A stretch of DNA of 48,499 nucleotides from Candidatus Methanophagales archaeon (GTDB lineage Archaea; Halobacteriota; Syntropharchaeia; Alkanophagales; Methanospirareceae), in assembly GCA_017883965.1 (NCBI GenBank), contig JAFNKG010000012.1, positions 1-48,499 of the forward strand. The letters run 5' to 3'. The notes beneath the pieces were generated by a model. The model was given only the letters and a program-made list of their open reading frames with translations, was not told where the DNA came from and did no database searches. Positions 8,925-12,961 of the stretch are shown here, piece after piece. A program made the position numbers and the translations under genes. Every line of letters starts with the position of its first letter. Positions within the stretch are counted from its first letter, which is position 1.

Positions 8925-9005
8925 AGTATATACGAAGTAAACTTCGCATATCATTCCAAAATGGGTGGATATACGACATTGATGTCGGATATACCGATGT
9001 TAGGC
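8925..9005 (+). repeat. degenerate attC/attI-like site A preceding the cassette array
   Basis: Ends in core GTTAGGC (8999-9005); imperfect outer stem AGTATATACGA...TCGGATATACC; internal hairpins; degenerate left core GCCAAAG at 8925. Confidence 0.4.
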
Positions 9006-9027
9006 GAAATGCAAAGAGGGTAATAAT

Positions 9028-10305
9028 ATGTTGCCAAGAAAAGCACTCGTGATTGGGATTATCCTGATAATAGCAGTGTTAGTGGCATCAGTTTGTTTGC
9101 TGCATGTGCCAAGTGAGAGATATACACCGATGTGCAAAGCAATACCACTGGCAACCACTTCCGATGACGAAAAATATCCAATATGGAGTCCGGATGGAAA
9201 CAAGATATTCTTCAAATCCGATGATTGTATCTGTGTTTGTAACCCAGATGGGAGTCAAAGGGAAAATCTGACAGAGTTCAAGGGATCTTTTGTCTTTAGC
9301 CCGGATATGAAAAGGGTGTTTTATAAGAAGACTATATATAATGAAGGCAAAGTGACATACCAAGCTTATGTGATGGACATAGATGGCAAAAATCAAAAGA
9401 AAATCGCCGAACTCGCTCTTGAGGAAAAGTATGTTAATGATGAGGGTTATATAGGGAACACCAATGCACTAATGTATACAATGTATTCGTGGAGTCCAGA
9501 TAGAACAAAAATCTTCTTCACCAAATTAGAAGAAACGGGCTACACATGGGTATGGAGACAAGAAGAAGGAAAATGGGCAAGATACAAAGCTGGAACTGAG
9601 CCTTCCGTACCTGTGGAGGAGTTCTTGGGAGCAGAGCAGAGGTTAATCGCTAAAGAACATGAGGAAACCGCCTGGATATGGGATTTGCAAGATAACGAGT
9701 TGAGATTCATTGGCCATTTGAGCAATGGCATCGTACACTTTCTCCATAGAGGAGAGGTCGTCTGGGGCCCAGATGGCAAGTATGTGGCTTTACCTGGTGT
9801 TGAACTTTCAGAGGATGGAGCGACTGAGCAAATTTTTGTGATAAATGTGGAAACCGGGGAGAGCAAGAGATTGACTTCATTCATTGGGTCCAATACCTGG
9901 CCTATATGGAGTCCTGATGGTAAGAAGATAATGTACGTGCGAGTGCCGCCGAAATACTGGTATATGCCCTTCATCTTTAACGACGATGAGGGCGGGGATA
10001 TCAGGGTGGTGGATATCGATGGAAGCAGCGAAAAACAACTAACAGATATTCCGATGAATTGGGAAGATGGATATTGGAGCCCTGATGGGTCTAAGATAGC
10101 TTATCTTTCTTGGGAAGAATGGGGCGAGAAAAACGAGGTCTGGGTGATGAATGCAGATGGAAGCGATAAGAAACTGCTTGTAAAAGGAGAGCGGGTGGAG
10201 AGTCTAGACTGGAGTCCTGATGGCTCAAAGATAGCCTTTGTCACGGGAAAAGTGAGCGAAGGTAAGCTTGATCGTGACATATACGTGGTAGATGTGCTAA
10301 AATGA
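9028..10305 (+). CDS. TolB/PD40-type beta-propeller protein with N-terminal TM segment (cassette 1 cargo)
   Basis: Repeated P[IY]WSPDG[NKS]KI blades and hydrophobic N-terminus. Confidence 0.85.
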   Translation: MLPRKALVIGIILIIAVLVASVCLLHVPSERYTPMCKAIPLATTSDDEKYPIWSPDGNKIFFKSDDCICVCNPDGSQRENLTEFKGSFVFSPDMKRVFYKKTIYNEGKVTYQAYVMDIDGKNQKKIAELALEEKYVNDEGYIGNTNALMYTMYSWSPDRTKIFFTKLEETGYTWVWRQEEGKWARYKAGTEPSVPVEEFLGAEQRLIAKEHEETAWIWDLQDNELRFIGHLSNGIVHFLHRGEVVWGPDGKYVALPGVELSEDGATEQIFVINVETGESKRLTSFIGSNTWPIWSPDGKKIMYVRVPPKYWYMPFIFNDDEGGDIRVVDIDGSSEKQLTDIPMNWEDGYWSPDGSKIAYLSWEEWGEKNEVWVMNADGSDKKLLVKGERVESLDWSPDGSKIAFVTGKVSEGKLDRDIYVVDVLK

Positions 10306-10353
10306 TAACTTGTCTATTATTAGCAGGATACATTGCAGATAAAAAGTGCACTT

Positions 10354-10556
10354 CGCCTAACAGAGTGTATCTGGCTACGGTGCTTCGCACCTTCGCCCAA
10401 ATTTGCCCTATCGGGCAAACTTCAGATACGCTCGGAACGTCAGACTGTGTGAAAACCCCAAATTTTGAGAATTTTTTACCTTATTTTTTGATTTAAAGGC
10501 GGTATAGGGTTTATTTTTCATGCAAACATGAGTTTTTACACAACCTGACGTTATGC
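10354..10556 (+). repeat. attC-like site B, interrupted by a ~111 bp inverted-repeat element
   Basis: GCCTAAC (10354) A GAGTGTATCTG...CAGATACGCTC GGAAC // GTTATGC (10550-10556). Confidence 0.75.
10439..10549. mobile_element. MITE-like element (or mini-cassette) with ~18 bp terminal inverted repeats
   Basis: GTCAGACTGTGTGAAAAC ... GTTTTTACACAACCTGAC; no ORF inside; lies between GGAAC and GTTATGC of attC-B. Confidence 0.6.
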
Positions 10557-10578
10557 GACATTCCTAGGAGGATTTAAA

Positions 10579-11127
10579 ATGCAAATAAGTGTTTACCAAG
10601 AAGCCATAATAGAAATGCAACCCACCCATCTTTTAGTGAGATGTGGTAGATGCCGTGGAACTGGCACAAGAGACCGTGATGGTCGCAACCCGAAATGCTC
10701 AGTTTGCAATGGAGCTGGGAAGGTGCTTGTTAGAGTTCAGCCCGGCTCATTTATTAAATGTGGATTTTGCAAAGGAGATGGAACCAGAGATCGTGATGGA
10801 AGAGATCCTGTTTGTCCTGTATGCCGAGGAGTTGGTGGTCTATTTAGGGAGTTGCCCGCGGTTATTTGCTCAAGGTGCAATGGAATAGGTAGTCGAGATA
10901 GAGATGGAAAGACACCTATTTGCAGAGAGTGTGGGGGTAGTGGAGTTAGACCACTTGGGGAACGTCGCCTAACAGGCGGGTATCTGGCTCCGCACCTTGT
11001 AGGTGCTCCGACCCAGATTTGCTCCGCTTCGCTCCGCAAACTTCAGATACCCGCCGGGCGTTATGTGCAATTGAAAAAGTGCCGCAAGTATGGTAAACTT
11101 AATAAATTATCATTTTTTACTTCTTGA
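10579..11127 (+). CDS. Cys-rich protein with three CxxCxGxG...RDRDG...CxxCxGxG modules (cassette 2 cargo); ORF reads through attC-C
   Basis: AGGAGG RBS at 10567-10572; CGRCRGTGTRDRDGRNPKCSVCNGAG repeated three times; C-terminal part encoded by the attC. Confidence 0.7.
   Translation: MQISVYQEAIIEMQPTHLLVRCGRCRGTGTRDRDGRNPKCSVCNGAGKVLVRVQPGSFIKCGFCKGDGTRDRDGRDPVCPVCRGVGGLFRELPAVICSRCNGIGSRDRDGKTPICRECGGSGVRPLGERRLTGGYLAPHLVGAPTQICSASLRKLQIPAGRYVQLKKCRKYGKLNKLSFFTS
10967..11066 (+). repeat. attC-like site C
   Basis: GCCTAAC-A-GGCGGGTATCTGG...CTTCAGATACCCGCC-GGGC-GTTATGT; 12 bp perfect outer stem. Confidence 0.8.
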
Positions 11128-11139
11128 AGAGGAAATAAT

Positions 11140-12060: not shown

Positions 12061-12077
12061 ATATATGAGACATATAT
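12061..12077. promoter_or_regulatory. palindromic candidate operator/TATA region upstream of hicBA
   Basis: ATATATG-AGA-CATATAT inverted repeat about 20 nt before an AGGAGG RBS. Confidence 0.4.
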
Positions 12078-12098
12078 ATCCAATAGGAGGTATTAAAA

Positions 12099-12320
12099 AT
12101 GGAAAAATTACATCTGCCCATAATCATTGAGATGGACGAAGATGAGTATTACATAGTAAGTTGCCCGCTGTTCAGGGGTTGTCATTCTTACGGCGAAACT
12201 ATAGATGAGGCACTGGAAAATATAAGGGAAGTCATAGAGATGTGCCTCGAGGAGACAAAAGTCGAGGAGCTTAATAAGTTCGTAGGATTTAGGGAACTGG
12301 AAGTAGCTCAGAATGTCTAA
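12099..12320 (+). CDS. hicB: HicB-like antitoxin (cassette 4 cargo)
   Basis: IIIEMDEDEYYIVSCPLFRGCHSYGETIDEALENIREVIEMCLEE; overlaps hicA by 8 nt. Confidence 0.85.
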   Translation: MEKLHLPIIIEMDEDEYYIVSCPLFRGCHSYGETIDEALENIREVIEMCLEETKVEELNKFVGFRELEVAQNV

Positions 12321-12558
12321 ACTTCCCGTAATCAAAGGCAGAGAACTTGTAAAGTTTTTGGAATTCATGGGCTTTAGGGTTACCAGGACAAAAGGTTCTC
12401 ATGTAAGGTTGAGATCAGAAGATGGAAGGGTAACCACCGTTCCTGTGCATGGAAACAAGGACATACCCAAAGGGCTTTTGCGTAAAATAATCAGAGAAGA
12501 CTTGGAAATAAGTTTAGAAGAATTTTTAGAGTTATACTCAAGGTACAAAGGAAAATGA
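12313..12558 (+). CDS. hicA: HicA-like mRNA interferase toxin (cassette 4 cargo)
   Basis: LPVIKGRELVKFLEFMGFRVTRTKGSHVRLRS...VPVHGNKDIPKGLLRKIIRE. Confidence 0.88.
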   Translation: MSKLPVIKGRELVKFLEFMGFRVTRTKGSHVRLRSEDGRVTTVPVHGNKDIPKGLLRKIIREDLEISLEEFLELYSRYKGK

Positions 12559-12576
12559 GAAGATGATCGACACTTC

Positions 12577-12661
12577 GCCTAACAGAGCGTATCAGGCTCC
12601 GCTACGCTTCGCCCAAATTCCCCTTCGGGAAACTTCAGATACGCTCGTGACGACGTCAGGT
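12577..12661 (+). repeat. attC-like site E (right core degenerate: GTCAGGT)
   Basis: GCCTAAC-A-GAGCGTATC...CTTCAGATACGCTC-GTGACGAC-GTCAGGT; shares CTTCGCCCAAATT...AAACTTCAGATACGCTC with site B. Confidence 0.65.
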
Positions 12662-12690
12662 GAAACTTGGGCTGATTAGGAGGTAACTTT

Positions 12691-12961
12691 ATGGGAACTA
12701 AAATATTAGGACGAAACATCGTAGCCGATCCTGCCATCTGTCATGGCGAACCGACTTTTCGTGGCACACGCATCCTGGTTGCGGAAGTACTTGGAACAGG
12801 TAGCCAGCGGCATGGCTTGGGAGGCGATTATCGAAGAATGGCGTGGAGCATTGACCAAAGAAGCAATTGCAGAGGCTATTCGCTTAGCTCGTGAGGCGTT
12901 AAAATCTCATACCCCGTATTCCTCTCTGCTACGGGTCTGCCAACCGATTCCACCGCTTTGA
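12691..12961 (+). pseudogene. DUF433 family antitoxin-like gene, frameshifted
   Basis: Frame 1 ...VADPAICHGEPTFRGTRILVAEVL continues in frame 2 as EQVASGMAWEAIIEEWRGALTKEAIAEAIRLAREAL; one extra base near GTACTTGGAACAG (~12791). Confidence 0.75.

What the first reader, a model, noticed from the sequence alone, without database searches (positions are those of the whole stretch)
8925..12961. Integron-type gene-cassette array in an apparently archaeal chromosome
Seen: consecutive same-strand genes or gene pairs are each followed by an imperfect palindrome of about 80-120 bp. Each palindrome starts with an inverse core (GCCTAAC or ACATAAC) and ends with a core (GTTAGGC, GTTATGC or GTTATGT), and has an 8-12 bp outer stem. 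Cargo is PD40 propeller / Cys-rich protein / GNAT-YoaP / hicBA / DUF433. Established: attC sites have R''(RYYYAAC)...R'(GTTRRRY) architecture, and cassettes carry promoterless, co-oriented small genes including toxin-antitoxin modules. Inference: this is a cassette array (CALIN-like if no integrase is linked). Integrons have been reported in archaeal genomes before, so novelty lies in this array, host and cargo.
Basis: partly seen in the sequence, partly recalled or inferred. Interest (0 to 1): 0.9.

Follow-up and report, generated by a model that had tools for sequence, protein, structure and literature searches.

The report
Archaeal integron with unusual integrase
A methane-eating archaeon (ANME-1) carries a real array of movable gene cassettes, and it belongs to a widespread integron-like gene-capture system, also found in Desulfobacterota bacteria, whose recombinase lacks the domain thought to define integrons and carries a different, probably DNA-binding, domain instead.

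Summary
The array is real. Window 8880-12666 holds an attI-like site followed by four cassettes (PD40 propeller; Cys-rich DnaJ-type; GNAT-YoaP; hicBA). Each cassette ends in a folded attC-like palindrome. The host is ANME-1 (Methanophagales).

A covariance model finds all four palindromes, including two that were not used to build it. It finds about 32 such sites in this genome and sites in 46 of 59 genomes searched.

The decisive test used 39 cassettes. The start of a cassette pairs with that same cassette's own distant R'' box, and not with the other end of the palindrome in which that R'' box sits. This is the signature of circles inserted at G^TTRNNY. The hicBA cassette recurs in other genomes behind different attI or attC sites, with the breakpoint exactly there.

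The linked integrase is not a standard IntI. In relatives, site A lies directly behind a tyrosine-integrase family that lacks the IntI patch/I2 segment and has an N-terminal domain resembling HARP/XPB DNA-recognition domains. Desulfobacterota with this integrase carry the same organisation.

It works like an integron but fails one defining membership test. No recombination has been shown experimentally, and no intact integrase was found in this genome bin.

The parts
8880..8999 (+). attI-like site A: two palindromic repeats ending at the G of GTTAGGC; cassette junction between 8999 and 9000
   Evidence: 9 places in own genome, 33 of 59 genomes matched; aligned copies share the motif up to the G^TT bond; in relatives several copies lie directly behind an integrase gene or its C-terminal remnant
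9000..10551 (+). cassette 1 (includes the later insert): PD40 beta-propeller gene 9028-10305 plus attC B
   Evidence: Pfam PD40 4e-23; cassette start GTTAGGCGAAAT against complement of own R'' GTTAGGCGAAGT
10350..10440 (+). attC B, left part up to the insert; right core resumes as GTTATGC at 10551-10557
   Evidence: 72.9 bits, not in model training set
10441..10548 (+). 108-bp MITE-like element inside the attC B core, flanked by ACGT on both sides
   Evidence: Inverted ends CAGACTGTGTGAAAAC / GTTTTTACACAACCTG; same element in an attC of G005; further copies in relatives
10552..11060 (+). cassette 2: Cys-rich DnaJ-type zinc-finger ORF (10579 on; its frame runs through attC C to 11127)
   Evidence: Pfam DnaJ_CXXCXGXG 2e-9
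10962..11071 (+). attC C
   Evidence: 65.5 bits, in model training set
11061..12042 (+). cassette 3: GNAT-YoaP gene 11140-11904
   Evidence: YoaP 2e-14, GNAT; start GTTATGTGCAAT against complement of own R'' GTTATGTGCTGT
11921..12053 (+). attC D
   Evidence: 49.1 bits, in model training set
12043..12655 (+). cassette 4: hicB 12099-12320 and hicA 12313-12558 (toxin-antitoxin pair)
   Evidence: HicA 2e-20, HicB-like 3e-11; 97% identical cassette in G004, 86% in G032, with the left boundary at this bond
12572..12666 (+). attC E with degenerate right core GTCAGGT
   Evidence: 72.7 bits, not in model training set
12656..12900 (+). possible fifth cassette or chromosomal remnant: broken DUF433 gene (12691-12894), no attC behind it before mqnC
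   Evidence: DUF433 6e-8 over 26 residues; 98% identical DNA in G001 lies upstream of an attI copy

Best explanation
The region is a small integron cassette array in an ANME-1 archaeon. Genes travel as circular cassettes that each carry one attC. An integrase joins the attC of the circle, probably folded as a hairpin, to the attI-like site A or to an attC already in place, at G^TTRNNY. That cassettes were inserted at this bond as units is shown by sequence comparison. The enzyme is inferred to be the linked family of IntI/XerA-like tyrosine integrases, which lack the IntI patch and carry an N-terminal HARP/XPB-DRD-like domain that I propose recognises the folded attC. The window copy has lost its own integrase gene, so any recent insertion would need an integrase acting from elsewhere.
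For: Own-start pairing in 39 cassettes: 6.90 of 9 positions against 4.88 permuted (maximum 5.56 in 20,000); the in-place right core is at chance, 4.90 against 4.77, p=0.24; 32 cassettes in favour, 1 against, 6 ties. The hicBA cassette is shared with G004 (97%), G032 (86%) and G035 (91% over its first part), behind an attI, another attC and another attI, with similarity starting at the core. attC model: B and E at 73 bits as held-out sites; 32 sites in the own genome; 46 of 59 genomes. Site A lies at the 3' end of the integrase gene in several genomes; integrase, attI and attC follow each other in G040. The integrase lacks the segment between IntI model positions 180 and 233 and aligns to IntI4 with 28 residues in place of about 70. 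Desulfobacterota with the extended integrase carry the same kind of attI and attC.
Against: No recombination assay exists. The own genome bin holds only integrase fragments. The link from enzyme to sites rests on genomic neighbourhood. In most other ANME-1 genomes the attI copy near mqnC has no attC behind it. Core B is broken by an insert and core E is degenerate. The HARP-like assignment is weak by sequence (E 0.02-0.03). In bacterial arrays the own-start pairing is weaker (5.5 against 4.4 permuted, p=0.001, 11 cassettes).
Confidence: 0.85

Rival explanations
1. An ordinary CALIN: cassettes made and moved by a standard patch-bearing IntI from bacteria or another archaeon acting in trans; the patch-less integrase is unrelated.
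For: Standard archaeal integrons exist and are mostly CALINs (PMC9668308); no intact integrase in the own bin.
Against: No IntI over cut-off in 59 genomes; the attI-like site sits at the 3' end of the patch-less integrase gene; attC of class 1 plasmid R751 score only 7 bits with the model; genomes with the extended integrase are those rich in these attC in Desulfobacterota.
Confidence: 0.09
2. Modules moved by Xer-type double-strand recombination (like dif modules); the hairpin is not the substrate.
For: The integrase is XerA-like (NF040815 over cut-off) and lacks the patch; Xer recombinases need no folded site.
Against: A 12-bp stem with strong covariation lies between the two cores, and the two boxes of one in-place site do not match each other above chance.
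Confidence: 0.04
3. The palindromes are dispersed repeats (REP- or MITE-like) that happen to separate co-oriented genes; there are no cassettes.
For: The sites are multicopy and scattered over many contigs, and a MITE-like element is present.
Against: Cassette ends pair with each other over 0.4-2 kb, and a cassette is shared between genomes with its breakpoint at the core. Repeats alone predict neither.
Confidence: 0.02

Closest known systems
Archaeal integrons (Ghaly et al. 2022, PMC9668308)
   Same: Cassette arrays with folded attC, attI directly behind the integrase gene, cargo rich in toxin-antitoxin, methylase and acetyltransferase genes, and mostly arrays without an integrase nearby
   Different: Their IntIs have the IntI-specific domain; the family here lacks it and has an extra N-terminal domain. 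ANME-1 and Methanophagales are not mentioned in the main text; supplements were not read
Class 1 integron (R751: IntI1 and its attC)
   Same: R'' YAAC and R' GTT boxes, crossover at G^TT, cassettes with one attC each
   Different: The attC model does not recognise R751 attC (7 bits); the right core is GTTRNNY followed by GNNAT; spacers are mostly 1 and 5 nt; IntI1-type box I-II distance is typically 133, here 91-93
XerA archaeal recombinase (4a8e, 5hxy; NCBIfam NF040815)
   Same: Catalytic and core-binding domains align end to end; over the family cut-off
   Different: XerA has no N-terminal 65-residue domain in these structures and acts on a dif site (general knowledge), not on attC arrays
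HARP domain of SMARCAL1 (4o66) and N-terminal part of XPB (5tnu)
   Same: Predicted fold of the integrase N-terminal piece matches both (probability 0.99-1.00, E about 0.02); 4o66 is also the best profile hit (E 0.025)
   Different: There the domains sit on helicases and help recognise forked or damaged DNA (general knowledge); here the domain is on a recombinase and its DNA target is untested

Membership tests
Integron | Integrase of the IntI family with the additional patch III / I2 segment | tested here: not met
   No match over the TIGR02249 cut-off in 59 genomes and the segment 180-233 skipped; 28 residues where IntI4 has about 70; box distance 91-93 against 133
Integron | attI site beside the integrase gene | tested here: met
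   Site A copies directly behind the integrase or its 3' remnant in several genomes; not in the window itself, where the integrase is missing
Integron | attC with R''/R' boxes and a conserved fold behind each gene | tested here: met
Integron | Cassettes inserted as circles at G^TT | tested here: met
   Own-start pairing in 39 cassettes; shared hicBA cassette with breakpoint at the core
Integron | Strand-specific recombination of folded attC by the integrase | not testable with these tools
   Needs a bench assay
Integron | Cassettes expressed from a common promoter | not tested
   No expression data
CALIN | At least two attC less than 4 kb apart without an integrase gene nearby | tested here: inconclusive
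   Four sites in 2.3 kb and no integrase found near them, but the standard IntegronFinder attC model could not be run, and an attI-like site is present
XerA | Sequence over the XerA family cut-off | tested here: met
   253 bits against a cut-off of 220
XerA | Acts on a chromosomal dif site | not tested
   No dif search was made
HARP domain | Sequence over the Pfam HARP cut-off | tested here: not met
   2 of 60 members match at E <= 0.001; the one shown in detail has 20.1 bits against a cut-off of 25
HARP domain | Fold similar to the SMARCAL1 HARP structure | tested here: inconclusive
   4o66 ranks second, probability 0.99, E 0.023, TM about 0.5

The most novel reading that the evidence does not exclude
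Capture of gene cassettes through folded attC exists in a second form: a patch-less integrase clade shared by ANME-1, related archaea and Desulfobacterota, in which an N-terminal HARP/XPB-DRD-like domain takes the place of the I2 helix in recognising the hairpin, with attI platforms scattered around the genome.
Probability: 0.5. Interest if true: 0.95.

Novelty: new variant of a known kind. Interest (0 to 1): 0.86.

Why it matters
Integron integrases are thought to have gained single-strand recombination by acquiring the I2 helix (PMC7790495). A system with integron-type cassettes and an integrase that lacks I2 makes that idea directly testable: either another domain does the job, or I2 is not required. 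Surveys that require the patch would miss this integrase and file its arrays as CALINs. It also points to a gene-cassette system common to ANME-1 archaea and Desulfobacterota, the bacterial phylum of their usual partners (general knowledge).

Tried and rejected
- Rfam search of the window: no family, so it gives no support either way.
- IntI model over the own genome: fragments only.
- PF22823, listed on many homologues, turned out to be MrpR_C_cat and gave no match in the genome; dropped.
- Viral contigs: relatives of the integrase at 54% identity or below, most matching only from about residue 60 on; a viral carrier was not pursued.
- Shorter patch-less Desulfobacterota integrases without the N-terminal domain sit in genomes with few or no model-R1 attC; not counted as this system.
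- Literature: no paper holds both 'integron' and 'Methanophagales'; five hold 'ANME-1' and 'integron', none of them about this by title and abstract (not read in full); nothing relevant for HARP with tyrosine recombinase. The library is open-access only.
- Site E as a truncated attC: the model alignment shows a full-length site with core GTCAGGT. Point mutation and insertion scar both remain open.

Full report
Observation. Host: mqnC next to the array is up to 85% identical to ANME-1/Methanophagales records. Cargo by Pfam: PD40, DnaJ-type Cys-rich, GNAT+YoaP, HicB/HicA, DUF433.

Site A is not an attC. As a DNA query (window 8871-9027) it matches 33 of 59 genomes, with 9 places in the own genome. 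Aligned copies share GTATATACGAAGTAA..TTCGGATAT..CCAAAATGGGAGGATATACGACATTGATGTCGGATATACCGAA followed by GTTRNNYGNNAT. Several copies lie directly behind a tyrosine-integrase gene or its C-terminal remnant, the position of an attI.

The integrase. In 59 genomes the IntI model TIGR02249 gives no match over its cut-off; the strongest two-part matches cover about positions 2-180 and 233-315 and skip what lies between. The G040 protein (349 aa) aligns to IntI4 (2a3v) with 28 residues where IntI4 has about 70. The box I to box II distance is 91-93 in 114 relatives, against a typical 133 in IntI1-type proteins (the script stopped with an error after printing these numbers). By fold, IntI4 is the best PDB match. 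In a tree of 45 proteins, this family and the IntI1-type sequences are each one side of a branch; only IntI1-like IntIs were sampled and long branches are present, so the deeper order is unsure.

N-terminal domain. About 65 residues precede the core-binding domain. The family profile hits the SMARCAL1 HARP domain 4o66 weakly but collinearly (E 0.031; E 0.025). The AlphaFold model of the piece (pLDDT 82.6) matches XPB and 4o66 with probability 0.99-1.00 and E about 0.02. I treat 'HARP/DRD-like' as likely, and its role on folded attC as inference.

attC. A scan for YAAC and GTTR cores with adjacent stems found sites on the strand of site A, mostly downstream of it, in many loci (17 sites in 193 kb of regions chosen around site A or integrase hits, 3 in 537 kb of other genomes, none in shuffles). 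A covariance model from 24 of them finds B and E, which were not used to build it, at about 73 bits. It finds 30 sites at E up to 0.001 in this genome and sites in 46 of 59 genomes, including four genomes of other families of the phylum outside the class. At E up to 0.01 the own genome has 32 sites on 19 contigs. The commonest geometry is 1 nt between R'' and the stem and 5 nt between the stem and R'. On 96 hits (91 distinct) the stem covaries well above shuffled and slid controls.

Boundary test. In an integron a cassette circle contains R'' and its own R'. After insertion, R' stays at the front of the cassette while R'' is at its end. So the front should pair with the same cassette's R'', and the right core now next to R'' should not. 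Across 39 cassettes this holds: 6.90 of 9 against 4.88 permuted; in-place core 4.90 against 4.77 permuted. Site choice did not use this pairing. One of the 39 (window cassette 2) was scored at the insert junction and not at its true core, which works against the result. In bacterial arrays the effect is present but smaller (5.5 against 4.4, p=0.001, 11 cassettes, some with insert-damaged cores).

Shared cassette. hicBA from 12043 on is 97% identical in G004, 86% in G032 and 91% over its first part in G035. It is preceded there by an attI, a different attC and another attI; similarity begins at the core in each.

Locus comparison. None of the cargo lies downstream of mqnC in the other ANME-1 loci. 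Site A occurs between an sfsA relic and mqnC in Hel0.bin107 with different genes behind it, and 2.0-4.4 kb from mqnC in five further loci. I infer an old integron locus beside mqnC whose integrase was lost. In those loci no attC was found behind that attI.

Bacteria. Of 248 genomes from the phylum of G059 (a Syntrophobacterales MAG, Desulfobacterota), 15 have an integrase match at E up to 1e-60. The eight with the closest matches, some partial or interrupted, all carry model-R1 attC (73 sites in all); the 12 other genomes searched carry 6. attI-like repeats ending in GTTAGGCGAAAG, GTTATCTGCAAT or GTTATATGAAAT follow the integrase stop in G106, G108 and G233. The G106 integrase is identical to a protein named for Thermodesulforhabdus norvegica.

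Verdict. Shown: the array, the attI-like site, its linkage to this integrase family, and the cassette-insertion signature. Inferred: that this integrase is the enzyme, that folded single strands are the substrate, and that the HARP-like domain takes over from the patch. It works like an integron; it fails the patch criterion for strict membership. Limits: MAG data, an open-access library only, no IntegronFinder run, supplements of PMC9668308 not read.

Noticed in passing
window 10441-10548; L203:67-174; L348:14765-14903: A 108-bp MITE-like element with 16-bp inverted ends sits in the core of attC B, flanked by ACGT. The same element, inverted, sits in an attC of G005, and a 139-bp cousin lies beside an attC in bacterial G107; it may target attC cores.
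   Followed up: partly
window 12640-12666: Site E ends GACGACGTCAGGTGAAAC: either a T-to-C change in the core or the scar of the same MITE-like element.
   Followed up: partly
window 10579-11127: The Cys-rich ORF has no stop before attC C and runs through it into the next cassette, so its true end may differ in the circular form.
   Followed up: no
L124 (G001:C62) 141-323 and window 12705-12888: The DUF433 piece behind attC E is 98% identical to a complete DUF433 ORF lying upstream of the attI copy near mqnC in a same-genus genome.
   Followed up: partly
L343-L348 (G107, one contig of 2.54 Mb): A Desulfobacterota genome in one contig carries 22 model-R1 attC in several clusters and one extended integrase; a good test organism if it is an isolate.
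   Followed up: partly
L238 (G225): A more distant 372-aa integrase has a similar N-terminal piece (..VRWCEIKKLWYIP..) but its genome has no model-R1 attC, so the domain is wider than this system.
   Followed up: no
window 23012-31500: A run of same-strand ORFs looks by eye like a restriction-modification or defence island (1106-aa methylase-like ORF, GNAT protein, Fic-like protein).
   Followed up: no
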